Positions 9,959-64,000 of a stretch of 64,000 bases of DNA are shown here, in pieces (the first letter of the stretch is position 1; each line of letters starts with the position of its first letter). The position numbers and the translations under genes were made by a program. A model generated the notes under the pieces. That model did no database searches. It saw only the letters and a list, made by a program, of their open reading frames with translations, and was not told the origin of the DNA. The stretch comes from Falsochrobactrum shanghaiense (lineage in GTDB: Bacteria > Pseudomonadota > Alphaproteobacteria > Rhizobiales > Rhizobiaceae): contig NZ_QGDB01000001.1 in NCBI RefSeq assembly GCF_003149535.1, positions 620,001 to 684,000 of the forward strand. Reading direction: 5' to 3'.

Positions 9959-10068
9959 GGGGCTGTCCTCTTCTTCGCACCAAAGCGGCAGATATGTTTG
10001 CAGACTCACTCAGAACCTGCTTCTCTTGACCATATCATGTGGCGCGCGCGCCGCCATCCGTCAAGTTC

Positions 10069-10173
10069 TAGAGCGGTTCCTGTTTAAACAGAATCGCCGG
10101 AACCGCTCTATTTTTTATTTTATCGCATTATCCGGACGCAAAACCGTTTCACACTTTTGCTGGAAATGCTCTA
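10069..10173. repeat. Dispersed intergenic repeat with terminal hairpin
   Basis: Composite element between trxA and addA. A 12-bp inverted repeat TAGAGCGGTTCC (10069-10080) / GGAACCGCTCTA (10099-10110) surrounds the palindrome TGTTTAAACA. It is followed by a T-run and by CGCATTATCC-GGACGCAAAACC-GTTTCACACTTTTGC-TGGAAATGCT at 10124-10170. The last part recurs at 43859-43903. The right edge meets the addA stop codon. Confidence 0.75.
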
Positions 10174-13100
10174 GTTACTCACCTTTCCTTGAGTGGCTTT
10201 AAGTGCCTCTAACGCTTCATCGAGCACGGCATCCGGCAGAGACATCAGAAATGGCCCTTCGGTGAAGAGCAAAGCAGCCTCCACCACGCGGCTCGGATAA
10301 AGCGGCGTGAGTAATTCGCGATAAAGCGCCAATTGCGCGCGATAGGCGAATGGCACCGCCTCAATCACCTTCGGCGGCGGGCGATTGGTCTTGTAATCGA
10401 CAATCAGAACGCGGTTTTCATCTACACTGATGCGGTCGATCTGGCCCGATACCGCATGGTCTTTACCACCCAGATCGATCATGCCCATGATCGCCACCTC
10501 GCCGCGTGAGCCTTGCGCAAAGACCGGCGCGAATTTTGAATCATCCAGCACGGCACGCACGCTGTCCCACGCTTTTTCCCGCTCGGCCTGCGGCCAGTCG
10601 GCGGCAATGCGCGCGAGATAATCCTGCGCCAGTTGCTCACGTTCAGCCTGCACCACGTCCGGCAGATATTGCAGCAGCATATGGATCGCCGTGCCGCGCC
10701 GCAAAGCAAAGCCGGGCGCTTCATTGCCCGGCCCCAGCACAGGCGAGGCCATGTCGAGCGGCGGTTCTTCATCCGCCTCGATCAGTGCCGAAGCGCCCGA
10801 GGGCGCCAGTGGACGCGGCAATCCGGGTTCGGGTTTCATCGGATGCAGATAGGCTTGCGGAAGCGGCGGCAGTGCAGTTGCCTCCTCCGGCTCGCTTTCA
10901 ATGATCTGTGTCAAGCCGCGCGGCGTGTTGCGATAGCGGCGCGCGGCCTCGCCCGTAATCGGATGGATGAAGGTTTCCGCCTTTGTGGTCAGCGCATCCT
11001 CGACCAGCCTGTGCCATGTCTCGCCGCTTTCGCGCGCGCCGCGATAGCCGCAAATGATGAGCCGGTCTTCGGCGCGCGTCATGCCCACATAGAGCAGGCG
11101 GCGATATTCTTCTTCGGCACGGGTCTTCAAACCTTCGATCCGGGCTGCCAGAAACCCGGTCTGATAGGCTGAATTGGGCTGCCAGAGGAAACCTTTCACC
11201 GGCTGACCGTCATTTGTAAGATCAAAGGGCACCAGTTTCGGCGCGCGGCTGCCGGTCCAGACCGCGCTGCCCGGATCCACCAGAAACACCACCGCACCTT
11301 CAAGCCCCTTGGCGGCATGCACCGTCATGATGCGCACTTCATCGCGCCCCTGATCGAGTTCGCGCTTGATTTCGGGCGAGGCTGCATCCAGCGTTTCCAG
11401 AAAAGCCTGCAAGCCCGGCAAGCCAGCGCGCTCGGCGGACAGCGCATAATTCTGGAATTCGTCGATAATGTCGCCCGCTTCCGGCCCCAATCGCGCCAGA
11501 AGCTTTCGGCGCGCGCCATCCGCACTCAATATGCGCGCATAGAACTCGAAGACCGGCATGGTGTCGGCCATGTTGCGCCAGCGGCTCAGCGTCTTATGGA
11601 CCGGGATAAGCGCCGCATCCTCTTGCGAGGCACGATAAAGCCGCTCGAACAGGGTTTCGCCCGCGCCGCGCGGATGGGCAAGCCTGAACAGCTGCTCGTC
11701 GTCCCAGCCGAAAAGCGGGCTTTTGAGAAGCGAAGCCAGCGAAAGATCGTCGGAAGGCTGCAACACAAAACGGCCCAGCGCCATCAGGTCCTGAATGGCG
11801 ATATGGCTGGTCAGTTTCAGCCGGTCGGCACCGGCCACCGGCACCTGAAGCTCCTTGAGCGCACGCGACAAGGCAGGCATGAACTGGTCGCGCTTGCGCA
11901 CCAGCACCATGATGTCACGCGGCGCAAGCTTGCGGTTCTGCCCCGGAATGGTTTCGCCGCGATCGAGCCAATAGCGGATGGTGGCTGCGATCTGCTCGGC
12001 CAGACGGACGGCGGGCGCGGCCAGGTGATCGACCGGTATGCGCCAGTCATCCGGCTCCTCCACCGCTTCCGGCGTCAGCATGTCCCAGATTTCCACCTCA
12101 CCCGGTTCGTTTTCGCGAATGGCCGAGTGAACCGTTGCCCCTGACAGGCCGCGATTGGCCTCGGGACGCGCAAAGACCTCATCCACTGCCTGCAACACAT
12201 CGGGAGCCGAGCGGAACGAGAAATTGAGGCTTACACGCTCGAATTGAAGCTGCGCATCCTCGGCGCGCAGACTGACCGCCCTGCCCTGCGCGGCAAAATC
12301 TTCCGGCACGGCACCCTGAAACGAATAGATCGACTGTTTTTCGTCGCCCACGGCAAACAGCGTGCGCTGCACATTGCGCTGGCCGAGGCCGGAGAAAAAC
12401 TCCTCTGAAAGCATGCGGATGACCTGCCACTGGTCGGGGCTGGTATCCTGCGCCTCATCGACCAGAATATGATCAATGCCGCGGTCGAGCTTATATTGCA
12501 CCCATTGCCCTGCGCCCTCGCGCGCCAGAAGCGCAACCGTGCGGGTAATCAGGTCTTCAAAGTCGAGCAGGCCGCGCTTGCGTTTCAAATCGTGATAGCG
12601 TTGCAGCAGATTGTCGATCAGCGTGAGGGCTGCCAGATTGAGCCGGACAAGACGCAATTCCCTGAGCCGGTCCAGTCCCTGTTCGATGCGGGCAGCGGCG
12701 GCGTTGAAATCCTCCTCGAAATCCGGCAACAGCTTTTTGACTGCCGCCGAGCCGACATAGGAACCGGATTTGGCCTCGCCCGTCGCCTTCAGGAAAGCCG
12801 CGCGCAGCACCGCCTCCCTGTCGATTGCGGTTTTCGCCTTGTCGAACTGCTTGAGTTGCAAGGCGAAATCATGTGCGCGCGCCGCGCCCTTCGCAATCGA
12901 GAGGATCAGATCGAGCGCATCGTCGGAAAATTCCGGCATCGGCCAGAGATCGGCGAGAATATCCGCCTCGCGCGCATCCGGACTGAAGCCGAAATTGCGA
13001 TGAAGCGCCTCGCTGCGATCCTCTGCCATGCCGAGTGCCGCGATATATTGCTGCAAGCCGTGGCGGCGGTTGACCGCCTCATCGAGCAGCGATTGCAGGC

Positions 13101-60321: not shown

Positions 60322-60436
60322 GCGATGTAACTAGCGCAATTTCACGCCGAACGAAACAGCCGCCGGTAATTGGATTTGAAGGCGCCCGGTCGCAAAACTT
60401 TTGCAATCGAACCAAGAAGCCCACATTAGAAATTGA

Positions 60437-60460
60437 CTCTGGCGGCCATGGCCGCCAGAG
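60437..60460. repeat. 24-bp perfect palindrome between holA and the Ig-like cluster
   Basis: Twelve bases CTCTGGCGGCCA (60437-60448) are followed directly by their reverse complement. It lies 14 bp after the stop codon of the 583-residue gene (minus strand). It may be a terminator hairpin, though no T-run follows, or an insertion boundary feature. Confidence 0.7.
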
Positions 60461-60474
60461 CAGATTCGTCATGG

Positions 60475-62226
60475 TCATGTGAACGTAATAGGTAAAAACT
60501 GACCGACTGGCTGTTGGCCGGTAAAATTTGCATATAGCCTTACAGGTGAGGACGAGACATTTGGGCCGGGCCACTGGGCGATATTCACCTGCACTTTACC
60601 TTCACCATCTGTTATCGCATATGCTCCGGGTGCAGGTGTTATTGGATATCCGTTAAGTCCGACAATGCGCGATTGTACATAGTATATGGATTGGACGAAA
60701 AGATAGACACGGCTATTGGGTGCGGGACGACCGTTGCTATCATTAAGAAAGACATAGGCTCTTGCAGTTCCCACTCGCTGATAGTTAGGGAAGGGAATAG
60801 GTTGAGTTATACCGGGCCTGTATAAGCGAAACGTTATGCTTAACTGGCCAGACGGTGGCGGCGGCGGTGGTATTGGTGGCGCTGGATTTACAACTTGAAA
60901 ATGGATTGTTGTATAATCATTGACCGTGGCATCGGAGACGAGTGAGGCGGTCACCGTGATGCTTTCAGCGAGTGTGGATTTGTCGGTGATATTGACCGTC
61001 GCCTTGCCGTTCGCGTCGGTCACCACCTGCTGAGGCGGTGGTGCTCCCTGAATGAACACATCATTGTTATGCGGGCTGATGTCAAAAAGGACAGCAACGC
61101 CGCTGACGGGCATGTTGTTTTGATCAACCAGCGTTGCAACAACGGTGTCGACGTCGGTGCCATTTGCCGGGGCATTGTCTTTTGTCGCGTTCGCCGTCAG
61201 ACGCAATTGCGGTTTCACGACAGCCTGGAAATGCACTATGGCACTATCATTGACCGTGGCATCGGAGACGAGTGAGGCGGTCACCGTGATGCTTTCAGCG
61301 AGTGTGGATTTGTCGGTGATATTGACCGTCGCCTTGCCGTTCACGTCGGTCACCACCTGCTGAGGCGGTGGTGCTCCCTGAATGAACACATCATTGTTAT
61401 GCGGGCTGATGTCAAAAAGGACAGCAACGCCGCTGACGGGCTTGTTGTTCTGATCAACCAGCGTTGCAACAACGGTGTCGACGTCGGTGCCATTTGCCGG
61501 GGCATTGTCTTTTGTCGTGTTCGCCGTCAGACGCAATTGCGGTTTTACGAAAGCCCGGAAATGGATATCGATATATCGCGTAATACTGGCATCCGTCACC
61601 AGTGAGCATGTCACCCTGATGATGGCGTCTTGCGCCGACTTGAGAGTAACAGGAACAGTGGCCTGCCCTGTGCTGTCAGTCTTGACAATTAACGGACTTG
61701 AATCAGGACCGAAAGTTGCTCCGCTCCCCGCCGGCAGTTCGAATTTGAGTTGCTGCATGGCAAGTGGCTGGTTATTGGCGTCCGTCAAGGTTGCCGTAAC
61801 CTTATCGGCATCCTCTCCGTCGGCAATAGCATAATCGACCGTCGCCTTCAGGCTAATCATGTCCTTTTTTACCGGCACGGCTCCGAACGTATAGCTGGTT
61901 TTATCAGAAAGCGCGGTGTTGACAGTGGGATATACTTCAATCTCTCCTGTTTCCGCACTTGTATCGACAAAACTTGCGGAAGCAATATAGGCGGGGTTAG
62001 CCTTGACGGTAACGGTCTTCTGACCGGTAGTCACAAATGTGGCATTGCCCTTTTTAATATTGAATGTGAAGAAAAGGCCCCCTCGGTAATCACCCGCATT
62101 CGTGAGGCTTGCCATGGCGATATTTTCGGAATTTCCGTTGGCCACCGAATTGTCAGTAACCATTTCAATCGTGGTTTTGGCATCGACGGGCAGCACGTTG
62201 CTTGATGAAGCATCTGTATTAGTCAT
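60475..62226 (-). CDS. Big_1-type Ig-like repeat protein
   Basis: 583 residues. Four Ig-like units of the intimin/invasin Big_1 type can be seen: a divergent one (about 15-100, KTTIEMVTDNSVANGNSENIA), one at about 105-210, and two nearly identical ones at about 213-322 and 323-432 with the pattern KDNAPANGTDVDTVVATLVDQNN, PVSGVAVLFDIS, DGKATVNITDKSTLAESITVT. A proline linker (PAPPIPPPPPPSG) then leads to a distinct beta-rich C-terminal domain (about 450-583). No signal peptide, anchor or autotransporter barrel is visible, so export route and location are unknown; adhesin, secreted or phage-tail-like roles are possible. It is 11 bp downstream of the 357-residue gene. Confidence 0.78.
   Translation of the reverse strand: MTNTDASSSNVLPVDAKTTIEMVTDNSVANGNSENIAMASLTNAGDYRGGLFFTFNIKKGNATFVTTGQKTVTVKANPAYIASASFVDTSAETGEIEVYPTVNTALSDKTSYTFGAVPVKKDMISLKATVDYAIADGEDADKVTATLTDANNQPLAMQQLKFELPAGSGATFGPDSSPLIVKTDSTGQATVPVTLKSAQDAIIRVTCSLVTDASITRYIDIHFRAFVKPQLRLTANTTKDNAPANGTDVDTVVATLVDQNNKPVSGVAVLFDISPHNNDVFIQGAPPPQQVVTDVNGKATVNITDKSTLAESITVTASLVSDATVNDSAIVHFQAVVKPQLRLTANATKDNAPANGTDVDTVVATLVDQNNMPVSGVAVLFDISPHNNDVFIQGAPPPQQVVTDANGKATVNITDKSTLAESITVTASLVSDATVNDYTTIHFQVVNPAPPIPPPPPPSGQLSITFRLYRPGITQPIPFPNYQRVGTARAYVFLNDSNGRPAPNSRVYLFVQSIYYVQSRIVGLNGYPITPAPGAYAITDGEGKVQVNIAQWPGPNVSSSPVRLYANFTGQQPVGQFLPITFT
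60917..61246. repeat. 330-bp tandem repeat, copy A
   Basis: First unit in sequence order of a direct tandem repeat in the Big_1 gene, 330 bp long (110 codons). It differs from the next copy at four positions over the first ~298 bp. Confidence 0.9.
61247..61576. repeat. 330-bp tandem repeat, copy B
   Basis: Second unit of the tandem repeat, in frame with copy A. Its last ~30 bp diverge at the join to the preceding repeat unit. Confidence 0.9.
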
Positions 62227-62237
62227 GACAAAAGCCT

Positions 62238-63311
62238 TTATAACAAAGAACGAAATTCAATTTTATTGGTCCAATAAGCCGATGTTTGCATGCGCGGAAA
62301 AGCGGCCACATCGTAAGTGCCGGGCGCGTCGGCTATGACACCGAATTCGGCCATGCCGTTGACAATCGGGGTCGACGGAAGGTTCGTGCCGGGACTGGCG
62401 GAATAAGACTTGTTGTAGGTATGCTCAGCCATTCTCAACCCCTCTCCGAGATTGATGTAAAGCGTGTCGGTTGCTGCCGGATTTTTCATGATGAGGCTGA
62501 CGATGCACATTGTCTGTCCATCGGCGATACCAACGCTATTGCAAGAAACGGAATCGAAGGCGAGGGCGGCATCGCCTGTTGCCGGAACGTAATTTCCGAA
62601 AATAACCGGCTTGCTGATGAGTTCATCCTTTTTGCCGCGCCGGAAAAGGATGATCCGATCCGGATCATCGGCCAATAGGCCGGAAGGCCCTCCCGAGGGG
62701 TTAAGGGAATCGATACGGATCAGAACGAGCGGGCAGACCCCACGATCGTCAAAACTGAAAATGCAGGTTTCAGCTCCTCCGCAATCCTGAAAGCGAACCG
62801 CGCCGCCACTACGCGCCTCCAGTTCCAAACCTGCCGGCCCCCTGACGACCGCTACATCGGCGGGCATCAGATAGGGATATTTATCTGAATATCCGGCAGC
62901 GCCTTGCGTGATGTCGATCGAGATATGCTTTTCCAGCGAATCTGCTTTCACGTCAAAGACAAGAGTTCGAGACAAGCCGATATTCATGGCTGTATCGACG
63001 GACTTTATTTGTAAACTATACCGATTTCCGGCAGTAAAGTTACCTTTTACGTCAACAGGAAATATCGGAGCCTTCCCTTGATTGGGATTCTCTCCATCCG
63101 GATCCAGAGGCTCTATAGGCTGAGAGGCAATCTCTACACCATCCAGCAATAAAATTGCGGTTTGATCTGTTCTTATATTATCCCACGCAGCACATGTAAC
63201 AGAAATTGCACCTTGAACGACATTAAGATACAGAACGGGAGGAGAAGAACTATAATCAAGTACGGCAACTGAAAGATCCGTATCTCCAAGATCAGATAGT
63301 ATATTTATCAT
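62238..63311 (-). CDS. Unknown beta-rich protein sharing a domain with the 116-residue neighbour
   Basis: 357 residues, not recognised as a known family. The N-terminal ~120 residues have the pattern ISVTCAAWDNIRTDQTAILL, KAPIFPVDV, FTAGNRYSLQIKSVD and SRTLVFDV, which recurs in the 116-residue protein encoded next to it. The rest includes a cysteine-containing part (CGGAETCIFSFDDRGVCPL) and a C-terminal beta-rich domain (AEFGVIADAPGTYDVAAF). No signal peptide or membrane segment. ATG 63311 has AGGA 7 nt upstream. It sits 65 bp after the 116-residue gene and 11 bp before the Big_1 gene. Confidence 0.7.
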   Translation of the reverse strand: MINILSDLGDTDLSVAVLDYSSSPPVLYLNVVQGAISVTCAAWDNIRTDQTAILLLDGVEIASQPIEPLDPDGENPNQGKAPIFPVDVKGNFTAGNRYSLQIKSVDTAMNIGLSRTLVFDVKADSLEKHISIDITQGAAGYSDKYPYLMPADVAVVRGPAGLELEARSGGAVRFQDCGGAETCIFSFDDRGVCPLVLIRIDSLNPSGGPSGLLADDPDRIILFRRGKKDELISKPVIFGNYVPATGDAALAFDSVSCNSVGIADGQTMCIVSLIMKNPAATDTLYINLGEGLRMAEHTYNKSYSASPGTNLPSTPIVNGMAEFGVIADAPGTYDVAAFPRMQTSAYWTNKIEFRSLL

Positions 63312-63376
63312 AAATATATCCTATTTATAATATAAATATAATAATTGTATATGTTGAATATTGTTAAATAATACTA

Positions 63377-63727
63377 TTATGATATACTAATAAAAAGAGA
63401 TTGGCTTCTGCTTTTATTAGGATTGTCGGATCCATCCGGCTCAACAACCTCTATATATATTTCGTAGCCCTGACCCGACTGAAAGTGATTTGCGGTGGCA
63501 AGACTGAAGATTGGCGGGGACGCCAGGCGATCTTTGTAAGAAATAAGTTGCATCGACGCGACAGCGTTGCTATTGATAAATAGTGTAGCATGCTGAGTAG
63601 TTCTAATATGCTCCCATGGATCACAGGTAAATTGAATTGTATTACCAATATCTGAAATATTAATATGTCCATTATCTATGTGGTTTTGTATTATAAACGG
63701 AGTTATTTGACTTAAATTCTTATTCAT
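63377..63727 (-). CDS. Unknown small beta-rich protein (single domain)
   Basis: 116 residues consisting almost entirely of the domain shared with the 357-residue protein: TIQFTCDPWEHIRTTQHATL, PPIFSLATANHFQSGQGYEIYIEVVEPDG and SQSLFISI. Alignment by eye pairs TC..W..IRT.Q.A.L, PIF and F..G..Y...I..V. The gene is AT-rich (codons such as AAT, ATA, TTA frequent), unlike the core. The start codon lies 8 bp after the stop of the gene before it, indicating one transcript. Confidence 0.65.
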   Translation of the reverse strand: MNKNLSQITPFIIQNHIDNGHINISDIGNTIQFTCDPWEHIRTTQHATLFINSNAVASMQLISYKDRLASPPIFSLATANHFQSGQGYEIYIEVVEPDGSDNPNKSRSQSLFISIS

Positions 63728-63735
63728 TGTTTTAC

Positions 63736-64000
63736 CTATATAATTCTGGTTGAAAGAGTGCCCGTAGAAAAACTGCTTGCCGCAATTTCTTTATTCGTAC
63801 CTTTCGGCGTTACAGAATAATACATTTTATACAAATTTTTATACTGACTATTTTTTGGCGTTCCGTATCCGGATATATCACCAAAAGGAATAGTTATATG
63901 GAATTCCGTGTCGGTTGGAGTAATTACTGTTGCTTTGTAATTGTATTTGTTGGATGCAAAATTATCGTCAGCTTTATAGTCGCCCTGGAAGGTGGCGTGC
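63736..64000 (-). CDS. C-terminal part of another beta-rich protein (partial)
   Basis: An open frame enters from the right edge and ends at TAG 63738-63736; the 87 visible residues include HATFQGDYKADDNFASNKY, TDTEFHITIPFGDISGYG and LYKMYYSVTPKGTNKEI. The strand-rich pattern with YYSVTP near the end is that of repeated Ig-like extracellular domains. The start lies outside the window. The composition is AT-rich like its neighbour, and the following gene starts 8 bp on. Confidence 0.65.
   Translation of the reverse strand, partial: HATFQGDYKADDNFASNKYNYKATVITPTDTEFHITIPFGDISGYGTPKNSQYKNLYKMYYSVTPKGTNKEIAASSFSTGTLSTRII

What the first reader, a model, noticed from the sequence alone, without database searches (positions are those of the whole stretch)
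60475..64000. Compact cluster of four Ig-like / beta-rich genes in an AT-rich insertion beside the origin region
Four minus-strand genes (partial, 116, 357 and 583 residues) are spaced by 8, 65 and 11 bp, so they are likely one operon. Two share a domain (TC..W..IRT.Q.A.L...PIF...F..G..Y), the longest carries Big_1-type repeats, and the partial one looks like another Ig-like domain. None shows a signal peptide or membrane anchor, and no known secretion gene lies in view. Composition shifts to AT-rich from about 63.3 kb. The site is directly upstream of holA, where many proteobacteria have lptE and leuS. This suggests a horizontally acquired, lineage-specific surface, secreted or phage-tail-like system.
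Basis: partly seen in the sequence, partly recalled or inferred. Interest (0 to 1): 0.85.

Follow-up and report, generated by a model that had tools for sequence, protein, structure and literature searches.

The report
Mobile Ig-protein and autotransporter gene island
A patch of foreign DNA in this bacterium carries a small set of unusual immunoglobulin-like protein genes, a gene for a cell-surface autotransporter and a quinone-enzyme gene pair; the surface gene and the immunoglobulin-like genes were found together in only a few scattered relatives, so they probably form one shared surface-interaction module of unproven function.

Summary
Four minus-strand genes (519, 116, 357, 583 aa) with 8, 65 and 11 bp gaps lie at 60475-64000 and just beyond; two share a domain, the longest has Big_1 repeats. 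They are one end of a 14.2 kb insertion (60365 to 74532, past the window edge) between holA and an ABC-transporter ATPase. In 26 of 29 other genomes of the genus whose flanks were read, that ATPase lies directly upstream of holA; lptE/leuS are not the local rule. The island has three units: the Ig operon; a divergent type Va autotransporter 44 bp from it; and goxA-goxB-p362 (a LodA/GoxA-like quinoprotein oxidase with a catalase-related N-terminal part, its flavoprotein maturase, an orphan protein). The 357-aa family was found in 3 of 35 genomes of the genus; strong autotransporter relatives in the same three, in scattered lineages and at different places. Samples outside the genus gave none. 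The Ig proteins show no signal peptide; how or whether they leave the cell is open. Function is inferred, not shown.

The parts
60365..64000 (.). island, part inside the window; the whole island is L002:365-14532, i.e. 60365-74532 if counted on past the window edge (14,168 bp), with a 5-bp direct repeat GGCGG (in holA sense) at its ends. Beyond the edge: rest of p519 to L002:5295 (-), autotransporter L002:5340-8759 (+), p362 L002:8943-10031 (-), goxB L002:10000-11082 (-), goxA L002:11079-14210 (-)
   Evidence: blastn against the empty site of G274: pieces 1-362 and 358-460 of the empty site, overlapping by 5 bp (sequences); genes
60475..62226 (-). Big583: 583-aa protein with three Big_1 stretches, two of the repeats being 330-bp near-identical tandem copies; no signal peptide seen
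62238..63311 (-). p357: orphan family, about three predicted Ig-like domains (25-121, 125-242, 249-357)
63377..63727 (-). p116: single copy of the domain shared with the N-terminus of p357
63736..64000 (-). p519, 3' part in the window; whole gene L002:3736-5295 (519 aa), weakly Big_1-like
60437..60460 (-). GC-rich perfect inverted repeat just after Big583, read by eye as the operon's possible terminator; it is not in the terminator scan, as no T run follows
   Evidence: absent from the list

Best explanation
The genes are part of a horizontally spread surface-interaction module. Its core is a divergent pair of transcription units: a type Va autotransporter, exported through Sec and its own beta-barrel so that its glycine-rich passenger sits on the cell surface, and a four-gene operon of small, apparently Ig-like, non-enzymatic proteins made from the same 44-bp intergenic region and so probably co-regulated. 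I think it most likely that the Ig proteins are binding or scaffold partners used at the cell surface with the autotransporter (attachment to a host, to other cells or to a matrix), reaching it by a route other than Sec or by release from lysed cells. In this genome a second module lies with it: a goxA-goxB-p362 operon for a quinoprotein oxidase, in which the flavoprotein matures the Cys-Trp quinone and the oxidase makes hydrogen peroxide and ammonia from an amine or amino acid, beside an orphan, possibly Ig-like protein. Shown: gene layout, insertion, domain families, co-occurrence, conserved Cys928/Trp948. Inferred: Ig fold of p519 and p362, co-regulation, surface role, oxidase activity, and any joint action of the two modules.
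For: Autotransporter: Pfam beta-domain E 4.3e-36, autochaperone E 4.1e-19, TIGR01414 E 1.6e-97, N-terminal hydrophobic leader. Divergent starts are 44 bp apart here and about 70 bp apart in G263 if p519 there starts at the ATG I chose. The p357 family is in 3 of 35 genomes of the genus; the autotransporter passenger has strong relatives in these three (E 3.6e-278, 1.2e-102, 2.1e-45); the six other genomes with a match are at E 5e-10 or weaker and cover only parts of query residues 243-433. My arithmetic: 1 in 6545 for the same three of 35 by chance, if genomes were independent. The carriers are scattered on a holA tree of 30 of the 35 genomes and the operon lies at a different place in each. 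The order p519-(p116)-p357-Big is kept in all three, and third codon positions differ most in p357, p519 and p116, so these look like maintained genes. goxA: LodA_N E 7.2e-65, LodA_C E 6.9e-33; Asp924, Cys928 and Trp948 placed against LodA/GoxA; goxB: GoxB model E 9.3e-63. goxA and p362 relatives are each in 2 of 35 genomes, the same two, and in G263 goxAB, the p362 relative and the Ig-autotransporter pair are at three separate places.
Against: The Ig proteins have no signal peptide that I can see, so a place on the cell surface is not supported by sequence. An autotransporter normally exports only its own passenger (recalled). In G119 the link between autotransporter and operon is not seen: they are on two contigs whose ends break there, with no overlap found. 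p116 is absent between p357 and p519 in G263. G119 has no goxA match, so the oxidase is not needed by the core. The oxidase scores are under NCBI's equivalog cut-offs (310 of 750 for GoxA, 162 of 600 for LodA). p519 is the least conserved (23% between the window's and G263's) and its model is poor (pLDDT 48). Co-occurrence rests on three genomes and the divergent pairing on two.
Confidence: 0.45

Rival explanations
1. The Ig operon is an intracellular or decaying cargo that merely travels beside an autotransporter gene on mobile DNA, with no joint function.
For: No signal peptides seen; transposase-like genes beside the operon in G119 and an IS-like contig end in G263 (named by eye); G119's Big gene ends early beside a transposase-like gene; AT-rich composition.
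Against: The order p519-p357-Big is kept in three scattered species at different places, with third codon positions changing most, and a close autotransporter relative is present in all three genomes.
Confidence: 0.3
2. The island is chiefly a redox or antagonism cassette: the quinoprotein oxidase makes hydrogen peroxide against rivals or for biofilm dispersal, and the Ig-like proteins carry, anchor or protect it.
For: goxAB here; the oxidase and p362 occur in the same 2 of 35 genomes, both of which also have the Ig operon; LodA-like enzymes are reported to act in biofilms and as antimicrobials (PMC4699246, passages).
Against: G119 has the Ig operon without a goxA match. On five plasmids of Rhizobium, Azospirillum and Sinorhizobium whose surroundings I opened (of 7 records covering at least 80% of the oxidase) no Ig-like gene is annotated beside it, one of the five having no annotation and being read as ORFs by eye. 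A terminator-like hairpin lies between the p362 unit and the autotransporter (such sites as a set, 17, are not clearly above the 13.9 of shuffles).
Confidence: 0.15
3. The Ig proteins are parts of a phage-tail-like or other secreted particle, or the island is phage-borne cargo.
Against: I recognised no tail, sheath, baseplate or portal gene among the island's ORFs (by eye and the family scans); no phage-record match for Big583 or p519, and for the oxidase two records, matching only its catalase-like part; no viral contig with the p357 family; fold matches are of the generic Ig kind with TM-scores under 0.35 in the rows listed.
Confidence: 0.04

Closest known systems
Type Va (classical) autotransporters, such as the BmaA/B/C proteins of Brucella (PMC7697752, passages)
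   Same: Leader, passenger, autochaperone and beta-barrel in one protein
   Different: Here it is divergent to, and co-occurs with, an operon of Ig-like proteins; relation of its passenger to Bma proteins was not tested
BigA/BigB Ig-like adhesins of Brucella with PalA (BAB1_2009-2012; PMC7697752, passages)
   Same: Genomic-island genes with bacterial Ig-like domains in the same genus in the broad sense
   Different: BigA is described as an exposed outer-membrane protein; the proteins here show no signal peptide and no membrane part; no sequence comparison with BigA/BigB was made
LodA/GoxA family of CTQ quinoprotein oxidases, group III with N-terminal catalase-type fusions (PMC4417212, passages and the Group III section)
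   Same: LodA_N and LodA_C domains, maturase gene next door; N-terminal part matching proteins annotated as catalase
   Different: Below the cut-offs of the LodA and GoxA models; placed beside an Ig operon and an autotransporter; group membership by tree was not tested
Invasin/intimin family Big_1 proteins
   Different: No signal peptide seen and no outer-membrane barrel family in the 583-aa protein

Membership tests
Type Va autotransporter (the gene divergent to the Ig operon) | C-terminal beta-barrel translocator | tested here: met
   Pfam PF03797 E 4.3e-36 at 864-1113; TIGR01414 E 1.6e-97
Type Va autotransporter (the gene divergent to the Ig operon) | N-terminal Sec leader | tested here: inconclusive
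   Hydrophobic N-terminal stretch by hydropathy scan and reading; no signal-peptide program was run
Type Va autotransporter (the gene divergent to the Ig operon) | Passenger with autochaperone | tested here: met
   AC_1 E 4.1e-19 at 654-755
LodA/GoxA CTQ oxidases | LodA_N and LodA_C domains | tested here: met
   219.4 and 113.9 bits against cut-offs 26.3 and 25
LodA/GoxA CTQ oxidases | Cys and Trp that form the quinone | tested here: met
   Cys928 aligned with the Cys that ends the LodA match and with a Cys of GoxA; Trp948 aligned with a Trp of GoxA; the role of these residues is recalled
LodA/GoxA CTQ oxidases | Flavoprotein maturase encoded next door | tested here: met
   GoxB model E 9.3e-63, though 212 bits is under its cut-off of 400
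GoxA proper (glycine oxidase) | Score above NCBI's equivalog cut-off | tested here: not met
   309.9 bits against 750
Invasin/intimin-type surface adhesins (Big583) | Big_1 domains | tested here: met
   E 4.5e-44, three stretches
Invasin/intimin-type surface adhesins (Big583) | Signal peptide and outer-membrane barrel | tested here: not met
   No leader after the ATG by hydropathy scan and no barrel family; ten hydrophobic codons before the ATG hold no ATG, GTG or TTG
BigA/BigB island of Brucella | Sequence relation to BigA or BigB | not tested
   Known here from passages of the review only
Phage-tail-like particle | Tail or particle structural genes nearby | tested here: inconclusive
   None recognised among island ORFs; PHROGs gave families of unknown function for Big583, goxA and goxB, and a tail-terminator match for p519 at E 0.02

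The most novel reading that the evidence does not exclude
A split display system: signal-less Ig-like subunits encoded divergently from a type Va autotransporter are carried to or assembled on the cell surface with the help of that autotransporter, which would be a new way for cytoplasmic Ig proteins to reach the surface.
Probability: 0.06. Interest if true: 0.75.

Novelty: new variant of a known kind. Interest (0 to 1): 0.42.

Why it matters
Autotransporters, Big_1 proteins and CTQ oxidases are each known, but a divergent pairing of an autotransporter with an operon of signal-less Ig-like proteins, three of them of families seen in no other genus in my samples, is not one I found described (searches; an open-access library only). 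If the pairing is functional, it marks a mobile surface module in relatives of Brucella and Ochrobactrum, and it poses a clear question: how Ig proteins without a leader serve a surface function. It also suggests that the spacer upstream of holA is a repeated insertion site in this genus (other genes there in 4 of 30 genomes, the window's included).

Tried and rejected
lptE/leuS displaced by the island: rejected, since the ABC ATPase is the usual neighbour (26 of 29) and leuS is elsewhere. Defence system: PADLOC gave nothing for the Ig proteins or the oxidase and one weak match for goxB (E 2.5e-4). Wider relatives of p357, p116 and p519: own genome only in class (1 of 289) and phylum (1 of 349; 3 of 398 at E 0.1, the two others at E 0.006 and 0.012, short, one of them with stops); none in plasmids for p357 and p519 or p362 or its G263 relative. 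Big583 matches 8 plasmid records of Enterobacterales through Ig-like proteins, about 29-32% identical, as expected of Big_1. The genome-contig scan uses short conserved patterns and can miss distant relatives. Plasmid relatives of the island's end spacers: none; the 5-bp repeat may be a target duplication or chance. PDB sequence matches for p357 (one at E 0.62) and Big583 (none at 0.001): nothing credible. The model of p519 had pLDDT 48 and was not used further. The catalase-like N-terminus of goxA has no Pfam or NCBIfam match and only weak PDB ones (best E 0.026 to an uncharacterised protein, catalases at 0.18 or weaker); it rests on genes annotated as catalase on two plasmid and two phage records, on similar frames of about 400 aa in the order (unannotated), on the paper, and on His55, Asn146 and Tyr355, whose catalase roles are recalled. 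The name of the window's species was not found. In one search the goxA codon row used a wrong slice and is dropped. Promoter-like sites (34 against 22.1 in shuffles) were not used.
Full report

The island. Beyond p519, 44 bp away and divergent, is a 1139-aa type Va autotransporter (L002:5340-8759). Convergent to it, beyond a terminator-like hairpin at L002:8785-8806, is a unit of three overlapping genes read goxA, goxB, p362: a 1043-aa protein with LodA_N and LodA_C, a GoxB/LodB-like flavoprotein, and a 362-aa orphan with no family match. Then comes an ABC ATPase (L002:14541-15335). In 26 of 29 other genomes of the genus whose flanks were read, the same ATPase (89-92% identical) ends 46 to 211 bp before holA (loci were returned for 30 of the 35 genomes, the own one included). 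Against the empty site of G274 the island is L002:365-14532, 14,168 bp, with a 5-bp direct repeat at its ends. The three other genomes have something else there: two a LysR-like gene, one a gene that looks like an autotransporter (by eye). So the spacer seems to take up DNA repeatedly.

Distribution. With p357 as the marker, 3 of 35 genomes of the genus match: the window's, G119 and G263. In a family sample it is 2 of 247, the window's genome and G119 (G263 was not drawn); in class 1 of 289, own only; with the shared domain 1 of 349 in the phylum, own only; with p519 own only in the phylum at E 0.001, out of 398. These draws overlap. A pattern scan of genome contigs found two loci whose contig lengths equal those of G119 and G263: Brucella pseudintermedia CCUG 34735 and Ochrobactrum sp. 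CM-21-5. Plasmids and viral contigs gave none. In G119 the operon lies beside IS5-like transposase ORFs and, further on, a histidinol-dehydrogenase-like gene; in G263 beside phosphonate-type genes, with an IS-like contig end (names by eye). G263 lacks p116 between p357 and p519. The three carriers are not neighbours on a holA tree of 30 genomes (one gene, midpoint root, no support values printed). Third codon positions differ most between the copies of p357, p519 and p116, as expected for genes kept for their protein, though the margin is small for p519 of G263.

Links between the units. Strong relatives of the autotransporter passenger are in the three carriers only (9 of 35 match at E 0.001, but the other six genomes at 5e-10 or weaker, over the C-terminal part of the query). 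In G263 the divergent layout is seen directly. In G119 the autotransporter is a 3.6-kb contig of its own, open at both ends, and the operon contig starts just upstream of p519; no overlap was found, so adjacency is possible but not shown. The oxidase is in 2 of 35 and p362 in 2 of 35, the same two genomes, both carriers of the Ig operon. In G263 the oxidase pair, the p362 relative (28% identical, alone in an AT-rich stretch) and the Ig-autotransporter pair are at three separate places. Their joint presence is thus not only one insertion seen twice, but two genomes are few.

The oxidase. The quinone-forming Cys and Trp are in place (Cys928, Trp948; roles recalled), and a maturase gene overlaps it. 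It is below the equivalog cut-offs for GoxA and LodA, so its substrate is unknown. Of 106 plasmid records with a match, 7 cover at least 80% of it, at 32-38% identity, in Rhizobium, Azospirillum and Sinorhizobium; I opened five of these seven and saw no Ig cluster next to it, by annotation in four and by reading ORFs in the unannotated one; two of the five look broken. Fusions of a catalase-type domain to LodA-like proteins are in print (PMC4417212: passages, the Group III section). The catalase likeness of this N-terminus is weak by Pfam and PDB and rests on matches to annotated catalase genes on two plasmid and two phage records.

Reading. The strongest facts are the clean insertion, the narrow and scattered distribution, and the pairing of operon and autotransporter. 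They make a mobile surface-interaction module the best reading (0.45). The main weakness is the missing export signal: p519, p357 and p116 show no leader in the frame as sequenced; Big583 has ten hydrophobic codons before its ATG but no ATG, GTG or TTG among them. The chief rival is travelling cargo without joint function (0.30). Phage links exist but are generic: PHROG families of unknown function for Big583, goxA and goxB, and a phage neck domain among many Ig-like superpositions. Paper searches for such a pairing gave one unrelated-looking genome paper (listing only), none and 8 listed of 29 with none on this pairing by title and abstract start.

Safety note. The genus as classed here holds named Brucella and Ochrobactrum records. 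Only description and comparison were done, and bench tests with these genes are referred.

Noticed in passing
L074, L076, L078 (G270, G250, G276), upstream of holA: Other DNA sits at the same spacer: a LysR-like gene in two genomes and an autotransporter-like gene in one (by eye), so the spacer looks like a repeated insertion site.
   Followed up: partly
L011:1-8611 (G263): A very large autotransporter-like ORF (2870 aa within the locus, open at its end; by eye) is divergent to the goxA homologue in G263.
   Followed up: no
L007:3400-5249 (G119): The Big gene is only 276 aa there and a further ORF follows in another frame, next to IS5-like transposase ORFs; described only.
   Followed up: no
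L108:7710-8804 (G263): A solitary p362 relative in an AT-rich stretch (GC 0.39-0.47) between arsenic-resistance-like genes and other chromosomal genes (by eye).
   Followed up: partly
window 60916-61563: Two 330-bp tandem copies 97% alike inside Big583, a possible site of repeat-number change.
   Followed up: no
L045 and L047 (Sinorhizobium plasmids): The oxidase relative appears broken into pieces in both (several ORFs; 5 and 3 BLAST pieces); described only.
   Followed up: no
L002:11079-14210 and 10000-11082: PHROG families of unknown function match the oxidase (phrog_30760, E 2e-124) and the maturase (phrog_29573, E 1.1e-24), so LodA-like gene pairs occur in some viral or prophage records.
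   Followed up: partly
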